From Gari tellinella (lineage: Eukaryota; Mollusca; Bivalvia; Cardiida; Psammobiidae), in NCBI GenBank assembly GCA_922989275.2, contig OV277868.1, forward strand, positions 14,380,291 to 14,444,290: a stretch of 64,000 bases of DNA, given 5' to 3'. Below the pieces are notes generated by a model, which had not been told where the DNA came from, did not search any database, and saw only the letters and a program-made list of their open reading frames with translations. Shown piece by piece: positions 2,813 to 60,190 of this stretch. A program made the translations under genes and the position numbers. Numbering within the stretch: position 1 is the stretch's first letter; every line of letters begins with the position of its first letter.

Positions 2813-4852
2813 CTAACTAGGGCGAGGTAAGCATTTTTTTCTACAGCTTTGGGGACAGTGATGTAGATTCCTCCTTAAGAAACCAAGAATGGAATTTGCT
2901 TTTCTCCTTACCAAATCAATATGTGTGTTCCACTTCATGTTATCTGAGAATGTGATACCCAAATACGGATTATTTTGCACCTGTTGGAGAATGTGATTCT
3001 GGATGGTGTAAAAGTGTGTAGATTTTTGTCTAATACTCATTTGGTAACATTTTTTCGCGTTAAATTTCATTCCCCAGTTGTCCGCCCAGGTTTGGAGGCT
3101 ATCCAAGTCTTGTTGTAATTTAAGATGGTCGCTGAAATTTTTTATCTTTCTGTAGATCAAACAATCGTCTGCAAATAGTCTAATTTGAGATTTGACACAT
3201 TCGGGCATGTCATTTATATGACAGAGAAATAATAGCGGACCCAACACTGTTCCTTGAGGTACTCCTGATCCTACGTTCACTTCACCAGAGGTTTCACCGT
3301 CAACTACAACACACATTTTCCTTTGTGTAAGAAAGTTCTCGATCCACTCAAGGATGGTCCCTTGGATGCCGTATGCTTCAAGTTTCAACAGAAGACGTTT
3401 GTGGGGAACTGTGTCGAACGCTTTACTAAAGTCGAGTATCATCACATCAACTTGTTCATTAGCATCAAATGATTGTAGTAAGTCATGAGCCGTTACCACT
3501 AGTTGCGTTTCACATGAATAACCGGTACGAAAACCATGGTTTAAAGAAGTGAGCACATTGTGTTTATCTAGGTGGTTTAACAAGTGACGGCAAATAATAT
3601 GTTCCATGAGCTTGGAGAGAACGCATGTCAATGATACTGGACGATAGTTTTCTGGCAAATGTCTGTCACCTTTTTTAAATACTGGTGCGATGTTGGCATT
3701 ACGCCAATCACTAGGGAGTTCACCAGAGTCAATAGATTTCTGAAATATATCTGTTACCGCAGGAGCTATCTCTGAAGCACATGCTTGTAAGATGCGGTTA
3801 GGCAAACCATCCGGTCCAGCTGCTTTGTTTACTTTGACATTCTGAAGTAGCTTGGTTACCCCTCCAGTGTTGATGGTGAGTTGAGGAATGCTTTTATTTA
3901 GACGCTTAGGAAATATTGGGGGATTAACGTCCTCATCTTTAGTGAAAACCGACTGGAATTGTTCAACTAATATTTCAGCTTTAGCCTTTCCGTCTGTGAC
4001 AAGGTGGTAACCAGATTTTAAAGGTGAAACACCAATATTGTCTTCTTTCTTTGATTTAACAAATTTCCAGAAGGGTTTACTGTTATTTTGTTTTAAACTT
4101 TCATTTATGGTATCATTTATGTAACTCCATTCAGCTTTCCTGATTTCACGTTTACATTCACGCTGGTATTGTCGGAAGCGCGTCCAATTGTTTGTTTTCT
4201 TAGCTCTCTTATAAAGCCTGGCCTTTCGACGGAGAGCACGCTTGACATTACCTCTTATCCATGGAGTTGAACAGTTGGATTTGACCATTTTCGATGGTAC
4301 GTGAGTGTCTACTGCCATAAAAAACTCAGATTTAAACACCTTCCAAAGGTCATGAACAGAGCTACCTGATTCATATAGTTCAGACACTTTGGTAGATAAA
4401 TCAGATATTTTTACTTTCAAATCATCCCAGTTTGCTTTTGAAAAAAGGAAGCATTTCCTTGGCTTCTGCCTTGAATAAAAAGGTTTAGTGTCAGAGTCCA
4501 CTACCACAATGTCATGGTCGGAGATGCCGGGGGCGTTTGAGGAAGATTTGATGAGCGAAGGGTTAGTTGAGAAAACTAAATCCAATAGGTTCATTTCACG
4601 AGTGGGTTTGTCATGGATTTGTGTCAAGTTAAAGTCAATAGCTATATCAATTAATGCTTGCTGGATGTCTTTGTCTTGTCCTTTATTTACAGTTAATGAT
4701 TGCCAGTCAATGTCTGGGCAATTGAAGTCACCGGCTAAGAGAATCTGGTTGTCTTTCCCAGCAGTTGCTAGTTCAAGAGAGCGACGAAGTTCCTGCAATG
4801 CTTTCATGTTTCTCTGTGGCATATAGAATGACGCTACTAGAAGCTTTTTCAT
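2813..4852 (-). pseudogene. LINE endonuclease C-terminus plus reverse transcriptase
   Basis: This uninterrupted 679-residue frame carries the rest of the endonuclease, with GDFNCPDIDW at residues 41-50 and the catalytic SDHD at 111-114, then a basic linker. The reverse transcriptase follows: AGPDGLPN at 345-352, LDFSKAFDTVPH at 473-484 (motif A), GVPQGTVLGPLLF at 530-542 (motif B) and FADD at 560-563 (the catalytic motif C). All catalytic residues are present. The first Met is a convenience; the frame continues upstream to the shift near 4918. At the other end the frame derails at an A7 run (plus-strand T run near 2834), where family alignment predicts one base fewer. This is the core of a LINE that may have been active recently. 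Confidence 0.95.
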
Positions 4853-4901: not shown

Positions 4902-5264
4902 TCAGGTTTTTCCGAAGCAATAATTAAGGTCCTTATGTGCTAATACGAAGACACCTCCTCCCACTGAACTACGGTCATTTCTGTATGCAACGTAATGACT
5001 GGGGAAAACTTCGCTAGATTTGATGGCGTCAGCAGACATTGGCTTACCAGGCTTTACACCCCTCAACCACGACTCGGTTCCACAAACTAGATCTGGCTTA
5101 ATATAATTTAGTGCAGCCTGAAATTCAGAGCTATTTCCACGTACACTACGACAATTAACGTTCATTAGTCTAAAGTTACGCTTTTCAGACAGACCATAGA
5201 GCGAAGAGGTGTTTGAGTGCTCTGATGATGAGAGGCGCGATTTTCTCAAGTTAGAACTGTTCAC
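4902..5264 (-). pseudogene. LINE endonuclease, N-terminal part (frame 1 of 3)
   Basis: This 120-codon segment starts the retrotransposon protein. After a serine-rich leader of about 30 residues, the EEP fold begins with MNVNCRS at residues 34-40, whose Asn is a metal-site position in this family. It continues with GTESWL at 62-67, containing the catalytic Glu64, and GGGVFVL at 102-108. The frame then runs into a stop. The neighbouring frame continues the protein (IIASEKPDLV) from the same place, so a single-base change near 4918 splits the endonuclease. The first ATG is used here, but the true start is uncertain because LINE leaders vary. The role in the intact protein is nicking target DNA to prime reverse transcription. 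Confidence 0.85.
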
Positions 5265-14660: not shown

Positions 14661-15140
14661 TCGTCTGCAAACTTTGCATCTTCAACAATTCCATGAGTTG
14701 ATTTTTGGCTCGGAGAGCCTATATCGAATCCTTAAGAAAAATATTGGTGCGAGTCTAGCTCCACTTACAAACAAATCCTGTCATACGGGGTTTACATATG
14801 CTATCTAATGGAGCTTCAGTTGCTGGATACGTCACTATCAGATAAACCGTGTAGTAGTAGCACTGAGTTAAACTCAGGATCCAGAGCCTGTACGTGTGGT
14901 GATTTAAACACCGTATTTACTCCCTTGTAATAAACATCCACCTAGTAGTCATAGCAGACGATGCATTATAAGACATGCACATTACAAAATTCTTTAGGGT
15001 CTTTAAGCGCTGCAAGTCACTGCTTAATGCATGGCAATGGTAATGCAGAAACTCCATAATTAGCTTTCTGCATTACTTTGTTCTACATTAAACTGAAAGT
15101 CAGAGCCTGCAGTACTACAGTACTTTGATTTTATATCTTT
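14661..15140. other. No gene recognised
   Basis: No coding or clear repeated structure seen before the satellite begins. Confidence 0.4.
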
Positions 15141-16306
15141 ATAAATCGCACCCGATTGGTCAAACGGTACGTATCACAATTTGATCTGAATCCAAACTAT
15201 TTGCAGCAATAATCATGAATTAGCTCGCAGCGTGCAGTCATTTGGATCCAAACTAAAATCACACCGAGTGTCAAACAGTTCGTATCACGATCTGATCTGG
15301 ATCCAAACTGTTTGTAGCAATAATCACGAAATCGCCCGCAACGTTCAGAAGATTAATATTCATCTGGATCCAAACTAAAATCGCACCGAGTGCCAAACAC
15401 TTCGTATCACGATCTGATCTGGGTCCAAACTATTTGCAGCCATTATCTTGAATTCGCCCGTAACGTGCAGAAGGAAAATATACATCTGGATCCGAACTGT
15501 TAAATCGCACCGAGTATCAAACAATTCATATCACGACCTGAACTGGATCCAAACTATTTGCTGCAATAATCACGAAATCGCACGTAACGTGCAGAAGATA
15601 AAAATGCATCTGGATCCAAACTAAAATCGCACTGAGTGTCAAACAGTTCGTATCACGATCTGAACTGGATCCAAACTATTTGCAGCAATAATCACGAAAT
15701 CGCCCGTAACGTGCAGAAGGTTAATAATCATCTAGATCCAAACTAAAATCGCACCGAGTGTCAAACAGTTCATATCACGGCCTGAACTGGATCCAAACTA
15801 TTTGCAGCAAATAATCACGAAATCGCCCGTAACGTGCAGAAGGAAAATATTCATCTGGATCCGAACTAAAATCGCACTGAGTGTCAAACAGTTCATATCA
15901 CGATCTGAACTGGATCCAAACTATTTGCTGCAATAATCACGAAATCGCCCGTAACATGCAGAAGGTTAATATTCATCTGGATCCAAACTAAAATCGCACC
16001 GAGTGCCAAACACATCGTATCACGATCTAGTCTGGGTCCAAACTATTTGCAGCCATTATCTTGAATTCGCCCGTAACGTGCAGAAGGAAAATATTCATCT
16101 GGATCCGAACTTTAAAATCGCATCGAGTGTCAAACAGTTCTTATCACGATCTGAACTGGATCCAAACTATTTGCAGCAACAGTCACGAAATCGCCCGTAA
16201 CGTGCAGAAGGTTAATATTCATCTGGATCCAAACTGTAAAATCGCACCGAGAGTCAATGTACTGAAGCACGGTTACGAGGTGTCTGGTCTGGATCCAAAC
16301 TGTTAA
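15141..16306 (+). repeat. Satellite array, about 122-bp unit, nine to ten copies
   Basis: Units begin AAATCGCACCGAGTGTCAAA at about 15141, 15255, 15377, 15501, 15622, 15745, 15867, 15989, 16112 and 16236. Each contains CACGATCTGA(A/T)CTGGATC, then CAAACTATTTGCAGCAATAA and CGCCCGTAACGTGCAGAAGG, then CATCTGGATCCAAACT. CAAACAGTT near the start and AACTGTTTG-like sequence further on make an inverted pair in each unit. The same words make up the dispersed palindromes elsewhere in the window, so the satellite arose from that MITE. Reading frames through it are incidental. Confidence 0.95.
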
Positions 16307-26675: not shown

Positions 26676-29039
26676 TCAATTCAAATTGAATAGATATAAG
26701 CATATGGTATAGATGTATTGTAAACAATATTATCTACAGCATCACGGACCTAATCTCAAAACTGCCAACTCATTATTACAAACTTTAAACATGCATATAA
26801 ATACAGAGTTGTTTGGGCGGGTGAGAGAAGAAACTCCAAAAAAATCATTTGAATGCACAGAAAGCCGAAATGAAAATTCAGTGTAAAAATGTTAGCTTTT
26901 CTTAGATACCATGTCCGAAATGCTTCACTTTTTATCAATTATATTTACTATATATCGAATGTGGGTCAATTTACGCATGCTACGATAGTTTTTAAATATG
27001 GTTTTGGAAAAGTGATATGTACTCGCATAGACCTATATATCAAACAATGTTGATCGTGTTCTGGGAACTCATACTTGTTCTACACTTATTATAAATGTCT
27101 TGTACGGAAAAAAACCACTTACAGTCAATCATGTGCTGAGCGGTCATTCCTGCAAGCATCATGACCAGCCTCTTTTAAAAACAGACGCCGCGTCACTACT
27201 AAGGTGGCAATTAATCGTCAGCATGTTCAGGCCTTCTTTGTTCTTTATTTTCCTGCATTGCGTGTTCGCGATCGTCTCTTTAACTGTTGTTACAAATTGC
27301 TGGAAATGGTCTACATGTTTCGATTTATTGGTGCAACACATGATACACTGATACGTGATTGTCTAGTTGTCAAACCTCAACCAATATTAAAGAAACCTTA
27401 CACGAAACCAATTTCCTTGCTGAGCGGGTATCATCTGGGGAATAGCTTAGCTTTAAATCATAATGTTGACTTTAACGTATGCATTCAAACTTGATATAAT
27501 GCATAATATACAGTGTATGTCGTATTAGAAAGGCAAATTGATTGTTGATAAGCAGATGGGGATTTTAAGCCGGTTTTACGAAGTAAAGTGGCCCACATAT
27601 AACCGGGACCCGTTTAGTATTGTTAAGAAAGTGACCGACTCCTATTATGGATAACGACTCTCTCTAAAAAATAGTGACTCCTAACAACCACTGGTAAATC
27701 AACACTACACGTAAACTCGAACTTTAACACGTCTTTGCATGGCTTCTTCCAATCGCCGATATTAGAAACCGCTGATTGCAACCACTTAATTTTCCAAATT
27801 TGATCAACGGCAATTGGCACAATGACTGCATAAAAGGGTAAATGGTCTCAACAGTTTTACCAAGTTTTACTTCTTTGCTTTTAAATTACGCAAGGATAGT
27901 CTCAAAGAAATGATTGGATCAATTTAGGGAGAAACAATCAATTAGTTGGCTTGTCTATAAAAATGGTCTATATAGGCGTCAGTTAAAGGCACTGTAGCGT
28001 AAGAACAACGCACAGCATGTACAGCAATGGGTGCCTCACATGGATATTGGGCGATATCATAGTGAAGTTGTCAGTATATTGTGATAGCTGTGATTCAGAC
28101 ACTAGACAACAGGGCTTCGTGTCCTTGTGGAATATAGTGAGATGTCGTGAGGAAGAAATAATGTATTGTCCCCGAACGTGCAGTACAATAGGAACTATCA
28201 AAGTCTCTCCTTTTCCAATCGCAATGCAGTGAAATACAGAAAATTACACCAGGTTTCAGGATTTTTTCAAGTCGGAATGACGATCGGTTTGAAGTTTTAA
28301 CGGACGACACGTAATTCTGTGTATGGATAGAAGCGTTTACGATTGGAAAAAGGTGCTTTTAGTACAAACATGTTTATAATTGAGAAACATTGCCGATATA
28401 TTATTGTTCTATATAGATGTTCCTCCATAACTCGAACTTAAATTTAACTTGCATTTTAACTCTGAATACGGCTATATTGGATGTTAACTACTTGTAAATC
28501 TTCAAATATGTGGAGATCAACTGTAACCTTTTCCCGCTATGGATGACTTTTCTTATAATTGCAAATGCATGCAGCTTGGATACAGTACCTCGATAGGCGC
28601 CTGATCGTGATAAAACTGTTTGCCGCTGCTTCATATAGTATTGGTGTTTTATTTTACAGTTTGGATTTGTTATTAGACAACATATACAATCCCTCCAAAG
28701 GTTACGTGTGAATTGTGATTAATGCTCCAAAAAGTTTTGATCCAGATGCGAAGTCGAGTACCTTGGAATCTTGTCATGATCCAAACTAGTTGACACCCTG
28801 ATATACTCGATATGTTCAAGGACAAAACATATAGATAAACTTCGAGCATTGTTCCAGACAACACATTTTTCAGACGACATTACCTTTCGGCGCGGACTGT
28901 TTCTGCAGACGAGCATTATTCTGCATTTAAATGGCGTCAGTTTTGGTCTAGTATTAACGTGTTTGTTGGACAGCATAGCGCTTCATCGCCTGTTTTAACC
29001 CAAAATTGATTAGCGGAGCACAAGAAATATATACACTGC
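26676..29039. other. Repeat-poor stretch upstream of the ABHD15-like gene; no gene recognised
   Basis: No sustained domain-like reading frame on either strand, and few repeat words recur (a GATC...AAACTGTTTGCC fragment at about 28600). Promoter elements for the downstream gene would be expected near the 3' part, but none is recognisable with confidence. Confidence 0.4.
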
Positions 29040-30170
29040 ATGATGCTGTTACTATTGTCTTACATCGCAAAGTGGATTATTTGTGTGGTGGTATTCTTGC
29101 GATCTTTGCTCCGACCTTGCGATATTTTGCCTGTGTTACACTGTCGAGAGTCAGCCTTGAGCAAACACCTCATCAAACGACGTGGATTGCTAAGTAAGCC
29201 TTTTAGACCACCCGCTATCCTCAGAAACGGTGTGGTCCAGACATTTGTGTCTTATTTTCACATACCCACGGAAGAATTCGAGTTCCAACGGGAATACTTA
29301 CAGATGAATAACAGAGGAGTAGTGGCTGTAGACTGGTACACAAAATATCCTGATACACTCAGGCTGAATTGTCCAATCATTCTCATCTGTCCCCGTCTAA
29401 CTGGTGACGCAGAAAGTGTTGGCCAACTGTGCAAACTTGCGACGTGTAAGGGGTTCAGGACGGTTGTGTTCAACAGACGAGGTCATGGATCAACCTTACT
29501 TACATCGTCGAAATTGACGAGTACAGGAGATACTTCAGATATACGGCAAGTTCTAGAATATATCACATTCAAGTACCCTCACGTTCAGATCGTTGGAATA
29601 GGTATTGGGGCAGGCTGTGCCACTCTGTTCTCCTATCTTGGAGAGTACGGTTCATCGTCCCTTCTGAAGGCGGCCGTGTGCATATCACCATCGTATGACA
29701 ACACAGAGAAACTCTGTGATAAGATACCGAAATGGTATGAGTTGCTTCTGCTACTGAAAATGAAAAGAGTTCTTATGTGCTACTCCAAAGCCTTTCATAA
29801 AGTGATAGATTTGAAAGCAGCTATTGTGAGCGCATGGAGCCTGAAGGAGTTCGACTACCACGTGTACTGCAAACTCTACGGCATAGATACCTTTGAAAGT
29901 TTTTGGGCGCGCAATGATCCTATGAGAGATATTGATGAAATAGCGGCTCCAATTCTTTGCATTAACAGCATGGACGACCCTGTATCCAGGACGGAGAACA
30001 TTCCTTTCGACTTGTTTCACTTTTATCCCAATATGCTGCTTGTAACTGTGGACAAAGGCGGCCACTGTGCATTCCATGAGGATATACTGGGCTCGTCCTG
30101 GGCTGAGGGGCTGGCTATCCACTACATGGAAGGTGTGCTCGAGTTTATATCACATCCAAGACTTTATTAG
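29040..30170 (+). CDS. ABHD15: ABHD15-like alpha/beta-hydrolase, probable non-catalytic (Ser to Gly at nucleophile)
   Basis: A single uninterrupted 376-codon frame. Residues 1-24 are hydrophobic and look like a signal anchor or membrane segment. The PPAILRNGVVQTF block (57-69) opens the conserved region. FNRRGHGSTLLTSSKL (144-159) and GDTSDIRQVLEYI (163-175) follow, then the elbow VGIGIGAGCATLFSYLGEYG (185-204), ACISP-like VCISP at 213-217, FWARNDPMRDIDE (288-300), SMDDPV (310-315) and GGHCAF (340-345). These blocks and their order fit ABHD15 better than ABHD1/2/3. The family elbow is GxSxG; here it is GIGIG, with Gly188 (codon GGT, 29601-29603) at the serine position, while Asp312/313 and His342 remain. 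In mammals ABHD15 is linked to PDE3B and control of lipolysis; extending that role to this protein is inference. It is shorter than the human protein (about 470 residues), so an upstream exon is possible. MM start chosen as first Met before the hydrophobic segment. Confidence 0.88.
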   Translation: MMLLLLSYIAKWIICVVVFLRSLLRPCDILPVLHCRESALSKHLIKRRGLLSKPFRPPAILRNGVVQTFVSYFHIPTEEFEFQREYLQMNNRGVVAVDWYTKYPDTLRLNCPIILICPRLTGDAESVGQLCKLATCKGFRTVVFNRRGHGSTLLTSSKLTSTGDTSDIRQVLEYITFKYPHVQIVGIGIGAGCATLFSYLGEYGSSSLLKAAVCISPSYDNTEKLCDKIPKWYELLLLLKMKRVLMCYSKAFHKVIDLKAAIVSAWSLKEFDYHVYCKLYGIDTFESFWARNDPMRDIDEIAAPILCINSMDDPVSRTENIPFDLFHFYPNMLLVTVDKGGHCAFHEDILGSSWAEGLAIHYMEGVLEFISHPRLY

Positions 30171-30822: not shown

Positions 30823-30894
30823 CTTAAAGCAGGCTGAAAGTAAAGCAGAATGCGCCATAAGGCGCATTCTGCTTTACTTCCAGTCTGCTTTAAG
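30823..30894. mobile_element. Palindromic MITE of the CTTAAAGCAGGCTGAAAG family, best copy
   Basis: Arms of 34 bp (30823-30856 and 30861-30894) match with two mismatches around ATAA. The arms contain GTAAAGCAGAATGCGCC. Related copies: 33520-33605, 42795-42905, 50640-50705 and 61724-61845. Outer flank GTTTCTAGT(A/T)TTGAAGA is shared by several copies. Confidence 0.9.
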
Positions 30895-34666: not shown

Positions 34667-34740
34667 TTGTCGGTGCGGAACATATACAGGACTTCTGTGC
34701 GAAACAAACCTCGTGATACCTCGATGGCCCCCAGTGGTAG
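34667..34740 (+). repeat. Dispersed repeat, copy 2 (pairs with 31481-31562)
   Basis: GGTGCGGAACATATACAGGA and CTTCTGTGCGAAAC, ending GGCCCCCAGTG, directly followed by a GTA trinucleotide array. Confidence 0.8.
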
Positions 34741-34945
34741 TAGTAGTAGTAGAAGTAGCAGAAGTAACAGCAGCAGCAGTAGTAGTAGTAGTAGTAACAG
34801 CAGTAGAAGAAGTAGTAATTGTAGTAGTAGTAGTAGTAGAAGTAGTAGTTGTAGTAGTATTGGTAGTAGTAGTAGTACTAGTAGTAGTAGTAGTAAATGT
34901 AGTAGTAGTAGTAGTAGCAGCAGTAGCAGTAGAAGAAGTAGTTTA
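34740..34945. repeat. AGT trinucleotide array 1
   Basis: About 200 bp of AGT units with interspersed AGA, AGC and TGT variants. It is bounded by a dispersed repeat on the left and a retroposon 3' end on the right. Confidence 0.95.
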
Positions 34946-35876: not shown

Positions 35877-35878
35877 CA

Positions 35879-35911
<33 letters not shown>

Positions 35912-36308
35912 CAAGAAGTAGTAGTAGTAGTAATAGTAGAAGTAGTTCTAGTAGAAATAGTAGTAGTAGTGGTAGAAGTAGTAGAAACAGTAGTAGTTAT
36001 AGTAGTAGTAGTAGTAGTTGTAGTAGTAGAAGTATTAGTATTAGTAGAAGTAGTAGTAGTTGTAAAAGTAGTAGTTGTTGTAGTGGTAGAAGTAGTTGTA
36101 GTAGTAGTAGTAGGAGGAGTAACAGTAGTAGTAGTAGATGTAGTATTAGTTGAAGCAGTAATAGTAGTAGTAGTAGTTTTAGTAGAAGAAGAAGTAGTAG
36201 AAGTAGTTGTAGTAGTAGAAGTAGTAGTAGTAGACGTAAAAGTAGTAGTAGTAGTAGTAGTAGTAGAAGTAGTAGTAGAAGTAGTAGTAGTAGTAGCAGT
36301 AGCAACGG
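35877..36308. repeat. AGT trinucleotide array 2
   Basis: About 430 bp of AGT units with AGA, TGT and ATT variants. Reading frames through it give only Val, Thr, Leu or Ser runs and are not genes. It abuts the 3' end of the LINE fragment at 36310-37018. Confidence 0.95.
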
Positions 36309-36309
36309 T

Positions 36310-37018
36310 AGTACCTGTATCTGTGTATTTCTTTGAAGATACCAATACTGGCTTTAATTCAACGGGGGAGTGCGCTTAAGTCAAAAATACTTATGAGCGA
36401 TTTGAAGCTCTCTATAGTGTCAGTTTCCACAATGTTATCACTGAGCTTTTTCCAATCCAACGCTGTTCTCACAAAAAAAAGAGTTTTTAAAGTTCACTTT
36501 CTTTGAGAATATAGGAGAAAAACACCGTTTGTTGTTGTTAACACTATTTTCCACAATGTTTTTACTTATGTACTCCTCATATTGTTTAGCCCTTATAGTT
36601 ATTTTCGGTCTTAAGTGATGGTTTTAGATAGTGTTCTAGATTGATGGCCGGTACGTGCCCTTTCACCACCTTGTACAGAAGAGTCAGTCTGTGGTGGCGT
36701 CGTCTCTCTTGTAGTGGAGGTAGCTCCAGGTCCCTTAGCATGTTGGTGACACAGCCATCTTCTTGAGTCTTGTAGTCTCTGGTGACGAACCGAGCCGCTG
36801 ACCGCTGTACGCGCTCAAGTCTATCGATGTCTGTCTGTTGGTAGGGATCCCAGACACTGCAGCCGTACTCCAACTTGGACCTGATCAATGCAATGTAGGC
36901 ATTTTTCTTGCAGTCTTTTGAGCAGTTTCTTAAATTTCGACAAAGGAAACCTAGTGTAGAGTTGGCACGTTTGGTGATGTTGTTGATGTGAGTCTTCCAT
37001 TTTAGGTCTTCAGATAGT
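36310..37018 (-). pseudogene. 5'-truncated LINE, C-terminal coding part
   Basis: The minus strand begins at LSEDLKWKTHIN (about 37018), followed by RSKLEYGCSVWDPYQQTDID and QRSAARFVTRDYK, then LQERRRHHRLTLLYKVV. After a frame change near 36600 it continues as KQYEEYISKNIVEN, and after another at an A8 run (36470-36480 region) as RTALDWKKLSDN, ending LSALPR at a stop around 36359. The 3' untranslated segment shares AAAGCCAG(A/T)ATTGG with the element at 2235-5600, so both belong to one family. AGTAGTAGTA remains on its truncated side (37019-37028). Confidence 0.9.
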
Positions 37019-37052
37019 AGTAGTACAACAAGAGCACCGCAAGCCGGGCACA

Positions 37053-38394
37053 TTATACGCCCGTAAAATCGATCTTAGAATGTAGTCATACTAAAACGCT
37101 ATCAAGGTAAAGGGGAAAAAAGGGGAAGAACCGTGAAAGTTAGGTGTCATATGCTGACCAAGTTTCAAAAGAATTGGAATAAATTGTTTGAGAAAGAGAG
37201 CGGACAAACTAAAAAATGCCTGTTTTTGACGATAAAAGGGGCATAACTCTTGATTGTCTAGGGCAATCTTGCTGGTTATCAAAACTTGACCGAGACGTTA
37301 TGGCCATACACATGCTGAAAAAGTTTCAAAAGGATTGAAATAAATTTGTTTGAGTAAGAAAGCGGACAAACTAAAAATGCCGTTTTTGACAAAATAAGGG
37401 GCATTACTCTTGAATTTCAAGGGCAATCTGACAGAGACATTTTGGTCATACAGCTGCACACAAGTTTCAATGGAACATAACCGAGACAGTATGGTAATGC
37501 GGACAAAGTTTCAAAAGTATTGGCATAAATTTGTTTGAGTTAAAGAGCGAACAAACTAAAAAAATCCCATTTTTGACAAAAAAGGGCATACCTCTCGCAT
37601 GTCTTTGGAAATCTTATTGGTTATGGAACATAACTAGGACATTATGGTAATACACATGCTGATCAAGTTTCAAAAGGATTGGAATAAATTTGTTTGAGAA
37701 AGAGAGCGGACAAACTAAAATATAGCCGTTTTTGACGAAAAAGGCGCATAACTTTTGAATGTCTGGGACAATCTTGCTGGTTCTCAAACTTGACTGAGAC
37801 ATTTTGGTCATACAGCTTTACACAAGTTTCAAAATGATTGGAATAAATTTGTTTGAGTAAGGGCGCGGACAAACTAAAATGCCATTTTTTTGACGAAAAA
37901 AGGGGCATAACTCTTGAAAGTCTTGGGCAATCTTGCTGGTTATCGAACTTGACCGAGATATTATTGTCATACACGTTCTGACCAAGTTTCAATAGGATTT
38001 GACTAAATTTGTTTGAGTTAGAGAGCGGACATGAAAAAAGGTAACGGACGGACGGACGGACGGACAGACGGATGGTGTCCGTGCTTACGAGAGGGCACTT
38101 ACGTGGCTAAAATTCTTAGCCCCATAATTGAAAAACTTTAACTTGGCCGTCTCTTGTGTCATTAACCTGGCCATTTCTTGTGTCATTAACCTGGCCAGTT
38201 GTGGGATATAGGGTTAGGGGTAGGGTTAGCCTCCAGATCATTATTTTTTCAAAAAGAAAGCGTCTGTTGTGTGGCTAGCCACGCAAAAGAAAATAATAGA
38301 AAATAGCCACATAAGTATCCTCCCGTAAGAAGGACGGACGGACAGCGTCATAACATAATACGTCCCGTCTGAAGACGGGCGTATAATAAAAGTA
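37053..38394. mobile_element. 1.34-kb TIR element with internal tandem cassettes
   Basis: TTATACGCCCGT at the left (from 37053) is complementary to ACGGGCGTATAA at the right (to 38394), with TA-rich flanks compatible with a TA duplication. The interior carries about six cassettes of roughly 150-180 bp, each with GTTTGAGT(A/T)A(A/G)..GAGCGGACAAACTAAA, AAAAGGGGCATAACTCTTGA and AAGTTTCAAAAGGATTGG. A GGACGGACGGACGGACAGAC tract follows at 38046-38065. Near the right end CCCGTCTGAAGACGGG (38368-38383 region) is a small hairpin. No protein. Confidence 0.8.
38155..38228 (+). repeat. Short tandem and telomere-like GGGTTAG words
   Basis: Within the TIR element, TTGTGTCATTAACCTGGCCA occurs twice (27-bp spacing), followed by TAGGGTTAGGGGTAGGGTTA. 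Only three telomere-like units are present. Confidence 0.7.
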
Positions 38395-47110: not shown

Positions 47111-48281
47111 CACCGAAAATAGTAGTTTTAGCGTAAACGCTTTTATGCCTATTTGGGAAAGAATAAAATATTCTCCACTGTGTCTGCATCTAAAATTGAT
47201 GATTTCGGCATGTTGACTGAAGAAAAGTCGTTATGGGTGTTAATCAGTTTAGATCGTGACAAGGGATTTACTAATTGTTCAGCGTCTTGTCTAGATTTAA
47301 ACTGTTGGTAAATGGGACTGCATGCCAATGTTTTTAGCTCACCTGGCACGAAGTGCCAAGGTGAGCTTTTAGGATCGCTGGATGTCCGTCGTCCGTCGTC
47401 TGTCTGTCTGTCTGTTCACAATTGGTTCGTTAACACTCTAGCGGCTACAAATTTCATTGGATATTCATGAAACTTTATGACAATGTTTGTCTTGATGAAA
47501 TCTAGGTCAATTTCGAATGTGGGTCATGTCGGATCAAAAACTAGGTCACTAGGTCAAATCATAGAACAATCTTGTTAACACTCTAGCAGCTACAAATATT
47601 ATTGGATCTTAATGAAACTAAGTCAAAATGTTTGCCCCATTGATATCTAGGTCAAGTTCGAATATAGGTCATACTCGGTCAAAAACTAGGTCACTAGGTC
47701 AAATCATAGAAAAACCTAGTTAACACTCTAGAGGCTACAAATCTCATTGGAATTTAATGCATCATAGTCAGAATGTTTGCCTATTTGATATCTAGGTCAA
47801 GTTTGAATATGGATTATGTCGGGTCAAAAACTAGGTCACTAGGTCAAATCATAGGAAAACCTTGTTTACACTCTATAGGCTACAAATCTCACCTTACCTT
47901 CATGAAACTTTGTCAAAATGTTTGCCTCATTCATATCTAGGTCATGTTTGAATATGGGTCACGTCCGGTCAAAAACTAGGTCACTAGGTCAAATCATAGA
48001 AAAACCTTGTTAACACTCTAGAGGCTTCAAATCTCATTGGATTTTAATGAAATTCGGTCAGAATGTTTGCCTAATTGATATCTAGGTCAAGTTCGAATAT
48101 GGGTCACGTCGGATCAAAATTTAGGTCACTAGATCAAATCAAAGAAAAACATTGTTAATCCTCTAGAGGCTACAAATCTCATTAGATCTGAATGAAATAT
48201 TGCCAGAATGTTTGCCTACATCAAATCTAGGTCAAAATCAAATGTGGATTGTGTCTGGTCAGAAACTAGGTCAAATCATAG

Positions 48282-48939: not shown

Positions 48940-50340
48940 AACAAGAGGGCCTGAAGGCCCTGATATCGCTCACCATTTGTAATGAAGCCTGATAGCTTTA
49001 CCTTTGAATTTCACCCTTTTTATTCTAAATCCATTCAAGTTTTGTCGACCTGCTCTAGCATAGTAGAGTACATCAAAGGTAGATAACTAGAGCCTAAACT
49101 ACTGAAATGAAGCCTTTTTCTAGCGTTTCAAAGTACATCAAGGGCAGGTAACTATTGCCACAATGATAACATTTCAACAATAATTGCACTCCTTCGAGAA
49201 CGTATAGCTACATCCTTTGTGTACAAGTATAATCAAAATCCATTGAAAACTGTAGTTGTAAGAGTGTAAACGCTGTAAAATATGGCATTTTCAGCAATTT
49301 AAAGGTAGATATCTCTTGATCTATTTGTCCGATTCCGACCATAATCACCCAGTTTCGAACTCTTATGGTCATATACAATCTGGGCAAGTTTGAGAGAGCT
49401 TGGATAAATATTGTGGTCTCAAGAGCGTAAACACTGTTAAATATATCATTTTCAGCAATTCAAAGGTAGATAACTTTTGACCTATTGATCCGATTACAAC
49501 CATAATTGATCTCATCTGAATTCTTATGGTAATATACAATCTGAGTAAGTTTGAGAACGATTGGATAAAATTTGTGGCCTCTAGAGTGTAAACATCGTTA
49601 AATATGGCATTTTCAGCAATTCAAAGGTAGATAACTCTCAACCTATAAATCTGATTTCAACCATAATCAAACTCATCTGAATCCTTATAGTCATATACAA
49701 TCTGAGCAAGTTTGAGATAGATTGGATAAAAATTGTGAACTCTATAATGTAAACACTATTAAATATGGCATTTTCAGCAATTGAAAGGTAGATAACTCTT
49801 GATCTATTTGTCTGATTTCAACCAGAATCGAACTCATCCGAACTCTTATTGTCATATACAATCTGAGCAAGTTTTAGAAAGATTGGATAAATACTGTGGC
49901 CTCTAGAGTGTAAACACCGTTAAATATGGCATTTTCAGCAATTCAAAGGTAGATAACTCTTGATCTATTTATCCGATTTCAAACAAAATCGAAGTCTTTC
50001 GAACTCTTATGGTCATTGACAATCTGGGCAAGTTTGAGAAAGATTGGATAAATACTGTGGCCTCTAGAGTGTAAACACTGTTAAATATGCATTTTCAGCA
50101 GTTCAAAGGTAGATAACTCATGACCTATTTGTCCGATTTCAACCATAATCGAACTCATCCGAGATCTTATGGCAATATACCATCTGAGCAAGTTTAAGAA
50201 AGATTGGATAAAATGTGTGGCCTCTAGAGTGTAAACACTAAAATTGTTGACGCCGGACGACGCACGACGCACGACGGACGACGGACGCCGGACAATCAAG
50301 GATTGCAAAAGCTCACCCTGAGCTAGCTCAGGTGAGCTAA
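48940..50340 (+). mobile_element. Hairpin-capped element, innermost nested copy (complete)
   Basis: Starts AACAAGAGGGCCTGAAGGCC then ATCGCTCACC. It contains about seven 160-bp cassettes (TATGGCATTTTCAGCAATTC, AAAGGTAGATAACTCTTGA, GATTGGATAAATACTGTGGC). A CGGACGACGCACGACG tract lies at 50255-50290. It ends at 50340 with a CTCACCCTGAGCTAGCTCAG palindrome followed by GTGAGCTAA. Confidence 0.85.
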
Positions 50341-59329: not shown

Positions 59330-60190
59330 ACTGCAATAGAGCAACCCGGGATCTAACGCCCAATCCATATATTGTTGCCCGGGATGAAAAACCAAAATAC
59401 ATATCTGGAAGCCCCGGATCTAACGCTCAATCTATATGTTGTAACCTAGGGTCTAACGCCAAACCCATATCTGGTTGCCCAGGATCGAACCCTTAATCCA
59501 TATGTTGTAACCCGGGATCTAACGCCCAATCCATATGTTGTAACCCGGGACCTAACGCCAAATCCATATATGTTAGCCCGGGATCTAACGCCTAATCCAT
59601 ATGTGAGCCCGGTGTCTAACGCCCAATCCATATGTTGTAGCCCAGGGTCTAACACCCAATACATATGTTGTAGCCTGGGATCTAACGCCTAATCCATATG
59701 TTGTAGCCCAGGGTCTAACACCCAATCCTTATGTTGTAACCCGGGATCTAACGCCCAATCCATATGTTGTAACCCGGGACCTAACGCCAAATCCATATCT
59801 GTTAGCCCGGGATCTAACGCCTAATCCATATGTAAGCCCGGTGTCTAACGCCCAATCCATATGTTGTAACCCGGGATCTAACGCTCAATCCATATCAGGA
59901 TATTGAGCGTACAATCTATATCTGGTAGCGGCTAAGCCCCGGATCTAACGCCCAATCCATGTCTGGTAGCCTGGGATCTAACGCCTAATCCATATGTAAG
60001 CCCGGTGTCTAACGCCCAATCCATATGTTGTAGCCTGGGATCTAACGCCCAATCCATATGTTGTAGCCCAGGGTCTAACACCCAATCCATATGTTGTAGC
60101 CTGGAATCTAACGCCGAATCCATATGTTGTAGCCTGGGATCTAACGCCCAATCCATATGATGTAGCCTGGTATCTAACGCCCAATACCTT
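59330..60190 (-). repeat. 33-bp minisatellite, about 25 copies
   Basis: Unit GGATCTAACGCCCAATCCAT then ATGTTGTAGCCCG, with some shortened units. Because 33 is a multiple of three, frames remain open and give 11-residue repeats such as MDWALDPRLQH, but units with different lengths break them and no start context or domain is seen. Larger blocks are duplicated (59500-59640 resembles 59740-59870). Considered non-coding. Confidence 0.95.

What the first reader, a model, noticed from the sequence alone, without database searches (positions are those of the whole stretch)
29040..30170. ABHD15-like protein whose catalytic serine position is glycine
Seen: a clean 376-codon single-exon frame with ABHD15-type blocks (FNRRGHG, SYLGEYGSSS, FWARNDPMRDIDE, GGHCAF). 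The nucleophile elbow reads GIGIG, with Gly188 (codon GGT) where GxSxG hydrolases have Ser; the Asp and His regions persist. Known: related ABHD enzymes need that Ser, and mammalian ABHD15 is linked to PDE3B, where a scaffold role has been proposed. Inference: the molluscan protein is a pseudoenzyme under selection for a non-catalytic role. A single A-to-G change would convert AGT to GGT.
Basis: partly seen in the sequence, partly recalled or inferred. Interest (0 to 1): 0.75.

Follow-up and report, generated by a model that had tools for sequence, protein, structure and literature searches.

The report
Clam ABHD15 protein lacking catalytic serine
A clam-type gene encodes an intact member of the ABHD15 family whose enzyme-type active site has glycine in place of the key serine, a trait its molluscan relatives share and that seems to have evolved several separate times in animals, so it probably works without the usual enzyme chemistry.

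Summary
The frame at 29040-30170 is real: 376 codons, ABHD15-like over its full length (best named full-length relative Mercenaria, 63%), modelled as an alpha/beta-hydrolase fold at pLDDT 95.6. The nucleophile column is Gly190 (codon GGG, 29607-29609), so the AGT-to-GGT argument falls. Gly is not special to this copy: of 280 aligned proteins (this one included) the column is Ser 170, Gly 109, Cys 1. Named bivalve rows are Gly in 17 of 17, and the clade holding this gene in 31 of 32. Asp313 and His342 are kept in Gly-type rows (108 of 108; 104 of 106). A 94-row tree needs 11 changes, read as 8 Ser-to-Gly. Absence of the Ser and of probe labelling is already published for mouse-adipocyte ABHD15. 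So this is a new member of a known kind; the wider result is repeated Ser-to-Gly replacement in a family that still has many Ser-bearing members. dN/dS, expression and paralogue number in this genome were not tested.

The parts
29040..30170 (+). ABHD15-like coding sequence, 376 codons plus stop, one open frame; in-frame stop TGA at 29007-29009
   Evidence: homologues
29043..29108 (+). residues 2-23, predicted helix of mostly hydrophobic residues; membrane anchor inferred
   Evidence: secondary structure of the model and the sequence; anchoring is inference
29394..29396 (+). Arg119 in the loop after strand 113-117 (oxyanion-hole loop by analogy); Arg here in 33 of 109 Gly-type rows and 0 of 170 Ser-type rows
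29601..29603 (+).
29607..29609 (+). Gly190 (GGG), the nucleophile-elbow position
29973..29978 (+). Asp312-Asp313 after strand 305-310, acid position of the triad (which of the two was not settled)
30063..30065 (+). His342 of GGHC after strand 332-337, His position of the triad

Best explanation
An intact gene for an alpha/beta-hydrolase-fold protein of the ABHD15 family with an N-terminal hydrophobic helix. Its lineage lost the nucleophilic serine (to glycine) deep in molluscan history and kept the rest of the fold, including the Asp-His pair. Shown: the open frame, homology, Gly at the elbow, conserved Asp and His, clade-wide occurrence, several separate Ser/Gly changes elsewhere in the family. 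Inferred: it cannot do ordinary serine-hydrolase chemistry. Inferred with less support: it is membrane-anchored, the pocket still binds a lipid-like or acyl ligand, and the protein acts by binding a partner, as mammalian ABHD15 is reported to do with PDE3B.
For: Gly at the nucleophile column in 31 of 32 rows of the clade (11 of the 32 rows carry species names, all molluscs). Register fixed by alignment and by two models. P0001 keeps 42 of 42 columns that are invariant in the other 31 rows, and its end branch (0.34) lies within the 0.08-0.51 of the 13 other rows of its subclade. Asp313 in 108 of 108 and His342 in 104 of 106 Gly-type rows with a letter there. Arg119 only in Gly-type rows, 33 of 109 against 0 of 170. 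ABHD15 from mouse adipocytes is reported to lack the Ser, not to bind the serine-hydrolase probe, and its loss lowers PDE3B (PMC6601125, section 3.2 read).
Against: Near-invariant Asp and His in Gly-type proteins would also fit a remaining chemical role. No assay, transcript or dN/dS. One Ser-bearing row (P0047) sits inside the Gly clade, so Ser may be regained or the row misplaced. In its 14-row subclade P0001 keeps 78 of 83 columns invariant in the others, fewer than 11 of the other 13 rows do. The same mouse paper finds that part of ABHD15's effect is independent of PDE3B, and an earlier paper expected a hydrolytic active site (PMC3827343, passage). A PDE3-type partner in molluscs was not looked for.
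Confidence: 0.7

Rival explanations
1. The protein still catalyses by another route, for example a water activated by the Asp-His pair, or substrate-assisted chemistry, with the small Gly opening the pocket.
For: Asp313 108 of 108 and His342 104 of 106 in Gly-type rows; both are among the 53 columns of the clade with at least 31 of 32 identical.
Against: I recall no alpha/beta hydrolase of this group that works so. Mouse-adipocyte ABHD15 is not labelled by the probe, although the probe reports only a nucleophile. Arg119 enters the loop that by analogy forms the oxyanion hole.
Confidence: 0.15
2. A dispensable or decaying duplicate in an expanded clam family.
For: Mercenaria has at least four listed copies (P0004, P0011, P0018, P0021), so redundancy is possible. 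In its 14-row subclade P0001 keeps 78 of 83 columns invariant in the others, fewer than 11 of the other 13 rows.
Against: 376 open codons; 42 of 42 columns invariant in the wider clade kept; end branch within the range of its neighbours.
Confidence: 0.08
3. A different residue (Cys193, Ser198) serves as nucleophile.
For: Cys or Ser at 193 in 85 of 109 Gly-type rows; Ser198 is conserved in the clade.
Against: Position 193 is also Ser in 141 of 170 Ser-type rows, so it is not compensatory; both residues lie in helix 191-206, not in the turn. Distances to His342 were not measured.
Confidence: 0.04
4. Sequencing or assembly error at the codon.
For: Only one copy of the DNA was available.
Against: Gly at the same column in all 13 other rows of the subclade.
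Confidence: 0.01

Closest known systems
Mammalian ABHD15
   Same: Same family name; reported to lack the catalytic Ser and not to bind a serine-hydrolase probe (PMC6601125, section 3.2 read)
   Different: PDE3B partner and adipocyte role untested here; no row named as a mammal was among those listed to me, so its residue at the column was not seen
Ser-bearing ABHD15 proteins (hemichordates, amphioxus, cartilaginous fish, salamanders, most fish rows listed, gastropod P0104)
   Same: Same family, same Asp and His
   Different: Ser at the elbow; only 59 of the 170 Ser-bearing rows have the full GxSxG, and the vertebrate rows listed mostly read SxSxG, so activity is not assured. I saw no assay of any of them
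ABHD5/CGI-58
   Same: Hydrolase-fold protein without a conserved catalytic Ser, regulatory, binds acyl-CoA (passage of the PMC6601125 discussion)
   Different: Another ABHD subfamily (recalled)
Neuroligins (recalled, from no call)
   Same: Cholinesterase-like proteins in which Gly stands for the catalytic Ser (recalled)
   Different: Extracellular adhesion proteins of another subfamily (recalled)

Membership tests
ABHD15 family | Full-length homology to proteins named ABHD15 | tested here: met
   56-65% to Mercenaria, Mya and Ruditapes rows, 45-46% to scallop rows, 44-47% to hemichordate rows, 36-49% to named gastropod rows
ABHD15 family | Shared blocks around NRRGHG, SYLGEYGS, NDPMRD, DDP, GGHC | tested here: met
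ABHD15 family | Binding to PDE3B and effect on its stability (mammals) | not testable with these tools
   needs a binding experiment
Catalytic alpha/beta hydrolase (serine hydrolase) | Alpha/beta-hydrolase fold | tested here: met
Catalytic alpha/beta hydrolase (serine hydrolase) | Ser, Cys or Asp nucleophile at the elbow after strand beta-5 | tested here: not met
   Gly190
Catalytic alpha/beta hydrolase (serine hydrolase) | Acid after beta-7 and His after the last strand | tested here: met
   Asp312/313 and His342; geometry not measured
Catalytic alpha/beta hydrolase (serine hydrolase) | Turnover or probe labelling | not testable with these tools
   needs protein
Functional gene rather than pseudogene | Purifying selection (dN/dS) | not tested
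   No relatives' DNA obtained; the own-genome search did not answer on nine tries

The most novel reading that the evidence does not exclude
ABHD15 is a family in which the catalytic serine has been lost again and again in animals, nearly always to glycine, while the Asp-His pair stays. The conserved job of the family would then be non-catalytic (ligand sensing and partner binding), with catalysis an optional, repeatedly discarded and perhaps sometimes regained extra.
Probability: 0.45. Interest if true: 0.6.

Novelty: new member of a known kind. Interest (0 to 1): 0.42.

Why it matters
Mammalian ABHD15 is studied as an inactive partner of PDE3B in fat cells. If relatives in cartilaginous fish, most listed bony fish, salamanders and hemichordates keep the serine while frogs, molluscs and echinoderms lost it separately, then natural with-serine and without-serine versions exist side by side. 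That lets one ask directly what catalysis ever did in this family and whether the partner-binding role came first.

Tried and rejected
Rejected: Gly188 as the nucleophile position (register). Rejected: the AGT-to-GGT one-step origin (codon 190 is GGG, and the change is shared by the clade). Rejected: a private mutation of this copy. Looked for a second ABHD15 locus in the window by tblastn: one locus only. A PDB sequence search with a caecilian ABHD15 (P0258) gave no match at E 0.01; with P0001 only weak hits to distant hydrolases, best E 0.00075. The viral structure library gave general alpha/beta hydrolases among the 50 rows shown. Coordinates of the models were not available to scripts, so distances around His342 were not measured. 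NCBIfam gave only matches far below its cut-offs.

Papers. ABHD15 is held in 70 papers, of which 40 were listed to me, and I looked inside five (passages, and one section of PMC6601125). ABHD15 with mollusc: 0 papers; pseudoenzyme with catalytic serine and hydrolase fold: 0; pseudoenzyme with ABHD and catalytic triad: 0; ABHD15 with PDE3B and structure: 13 listed; a neuroligin search: 0. One search of six terms, any two required, was too loose to be useful. So I claim only that these searches showed no report on molluscan ABHD15 or on repeated loss.

The chance figure for 8 of 9 replacements landing on Gly (1.9e-5 with AGY codons and ts/tv 2; 3.0e-4 at ts/tv 4) is an illustration: it assumes single-step changes from AGY codons that I could not see, independent events, and the parsimony count.

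Full report
What is there. The window's plus strand carries one open frame, 29040-30170, 376 codons. An in-frame TGA lies at 29007-29009, and 386 codons are open from stop to stop. At the window's base composition a frame of that length has a chance of about 2e-12. It matches Pfam alpha/beta-hydrolase models, and 76 homologues were found among 2022 scored candidates; where they carry a specific name it is ABHD15, while others are called hypothetical or generic hydrolases or have no name. Full-length named relatives are Mercenaria (63%), Mya and Ruditapes (61%); a shorter Mactra protein matches at 67% over 77% of the query. The source is therefore a heterodont-type bivalve by inference; the species was not identified. 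Only one such locus lies in the window.

Which residue. In an alignment of 280 proteins (this one included) no row has a gap over residues 184-206; three rows (P0110, P0148, P0158) carry an insert there. The Ser of AIGVSAG (Saccoglossus) or AVSLSMG (amphioxus) stands over Gly190, and Gly188 is the first Gly of the motif. The predicted structure (122 aligned sequences, pLDDT 95.6, pTM 0.92) ends a strand at 189 and starts a helix at 191. In the Ser-bearing Haliotis protein the same turn holds Ser192 (83 sequences, pLDDT 95.8). So the elbow is G-I-G190-A-G and the codon is GGG.

The rest of the site. Asp312/313 follows the strand at 305-310 and His342 follows the strand at 332-337, the usual layout of acid and His (general layout from a passage of PMC8389839). 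Rows with a letter at the column keep Asp313 in 170 of 170 Ser-type and 108 of 108 Gly-type proteins, and His342 in 169 of 169 Ser-type and 104 of 106 Gly-type (2 Tyr, P0039 and P0069). In most of the window's subclade a loop after strand 113-117 reads PRLTG. Arg119 occurs in 33 of 109 Gly-type and 0 of 170 Ser-type rows, a second departure from an ordinary site; that this loop forms the oxyanion hole is by analogy. The position is variable in Ser-type rows too (mostly Asn, Gly or Asp).

How widespread. Of 280 aligned proteins the nucleophile column is Ser 170, Gly 109, Cys 1. The set comes from three word-based searches with list limits (one search listed 120 of 138, one search listed 120 of 516), so these are not population frequencies. 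Named rows (groups assigned by me from species names): bivalves Gly 17 of 17; gastropods Gly 12, Ser 5 of 17; octopus Gly 1 of 1; echinoderms Gly 5 of 5; hemichordates Ser 3 of 3; amphioxus Ser 2 of 2; annelids one each; oomycetes Ser 4 of 4; frogs Gly 14 of 14; salamanders and caecilian Ser 3 of 3; cartilaginous fish Ser 9 of 9; lungfish and coelacanth Ser 2 of 2. The other 93 rows from the vertebrate search are Ser 89, Gly 4 (two Megalops, one Stegastes, one unnamed). The remaining 108 rows, mostly unnamed and including the window's own, are Gly 55, Ser 52, Cys 1. Lottia has Gly rows (P0051, P0070) and a Ser row (P0159), so at least this gastropod keeps both kinds. Of the 170 Ser-bearing rows 59 have the full GxSxG; 106 have Ser at the first Gly position, mostly vertebrates, so Ser alone does not prove activity.

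Tree. From 280 rows, 138 remained after dropping rows under 85% filled, or over 80% identical to a kept row of the same state. I cut these by hand to 109 for a quick tree (10 changes) and to 94 (quick: 9 changes; careful: 11 changes), with the elbow columns left out. On the careful tree the bootstrap 5-95% range is 10-12 changes for the Ser label and 9-11 for the Gly label, well-supported branches force 7 and 6, and no tree of 200 has one origin. The bootstrap had not fully settled, and the invertebrate backbone is poorly resolved. Rooted on oomycete rows, equal-cost parsimony reads the 11 as 8 Ser-to-Gly, 2 Gly-to-Ser and 1 Ser-to-Cys; forbidding return to Ser gives 10 Ser-to-Gly plus an artificial detour through Cys at P0047. 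The frog, Megalops and Stegastes changes are clearly separate from the molluscan one. The clade of 32 rows holding this gene (support 99/86; 11 rows named, all molluscs, octopus, gastropods and bivalves) is Gly in 31; the unnamed P0047 has Ser. The Ser-bearing gastropod rows on the tree (P0104, P0072) fall in a separate group (99/91). Bivalves hold two Gly-type groups: the window's, and one with Pecten P0086 and Ruditapes P0093. Replacement almost only by Gly suggests that the tight elbow tolerates little else (inference; illustrative odds).

Selection. dN/dS was not possible. As a substitute, P0001 keeps 42 of 42 columns that are invariant in the other 31 rows of the clade, and its end branch (0.34) lies within the 0.08-0.51 of the 13 other rows of its subclade. 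This argues against a decaying copy but does not show expression. In that 14-row subclade it keeps 78 of 83 columns invariant in the others, fewer than 11 of the other 13 rows do.

Function. For ABHD15 from mouse adipocytes, PMC6601125 states that the catalytic Ser is absent and shows no labelling by a serine-hydrolase probe, reports less PDE3B when ABHD15 is lost, and finds part of the effect on lipolysis independent of PDE3B (section 3.2 read). Its discussion compares ABHD15 with CGI-58, which lacks the Ser and binds acyl-CoA (passage). A 2013 paper had expected a hydrolytic active site (PMC3827343, passage). A review passage says the molecular mechanism of the ABHD15-PDE3B interaction remains elusive (PMC8907745). 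The clam protein most likely works in the same general way: a non-catalytic hydrolase-fold protein, probably membrane-bound, that senses a ligand or holds a partner. Only the missing nucleophile and the conserved rest are shown; the partner and the ligand are inference. A remaining chemical role of the Asp-His pair is the main rival.

Verdict. The wider pattern, repeated Ser-to-Gly replacement with kept Asp and His in a family that also has many Ser-bearing members, was not seen in the paper listings and searches made (one search listed 40 of 70) and is the more interesting result.

Noticed in passing
window 2813-4852 (-): LINE-type retrotransposon frame of 679 aa with endonuclease and reverse transcriptase domains (Pfam RVT_1 E 7e-35); frames at 2380-2805, 4902-5264 and 36586-37053 gave no Pfam match at E 0.01.
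   Followed up: partly
window 15137-16257, 47429-48273, 49261-50239, 59345-60185: Long tandem arrays (units of about 122, 145, 161 and 33 bases), among others listed.
   Followed up: no
window 34733-34942 and 35878-36302: AGT-type triplet arrays that give long Val-rich or Thr-rich frames, probably spurious.
   Followed up: no
window 30823-30894: Inverted repeat, 34-base arms, 94% complementary, 4 bases between, about 650 bases after the stop codon; may be a small mobile element or hairpin.
   Followed up: no
P0047 (unnamed source): Ser at the elbow (ALSVSSGS) inside the molluscan Gly clade: possible reversal to Ser.
   Followed up: partly
P0175 and 13 other named frog proteins; P0214, P0258, P0263: Frog ABHD15 has Gly in 14 of 14 named rows, while salamanders and a caecilian have Ser in 3 of 3: loss on the frog stem.
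   Followed up: partly
P0061 (unnamed source): The only row of 280 with Cys at the nucleophile column (VGNCAGS), possibly a Cys hydrolase.
   Followed up: no
P0004, P0011, P0018, P0021 (Mercenaria): Four ABHD15-like rows all on a contig of the same length, 82,356,740 bases, so perhaps clustered on one chromosome.
   Followed up: no
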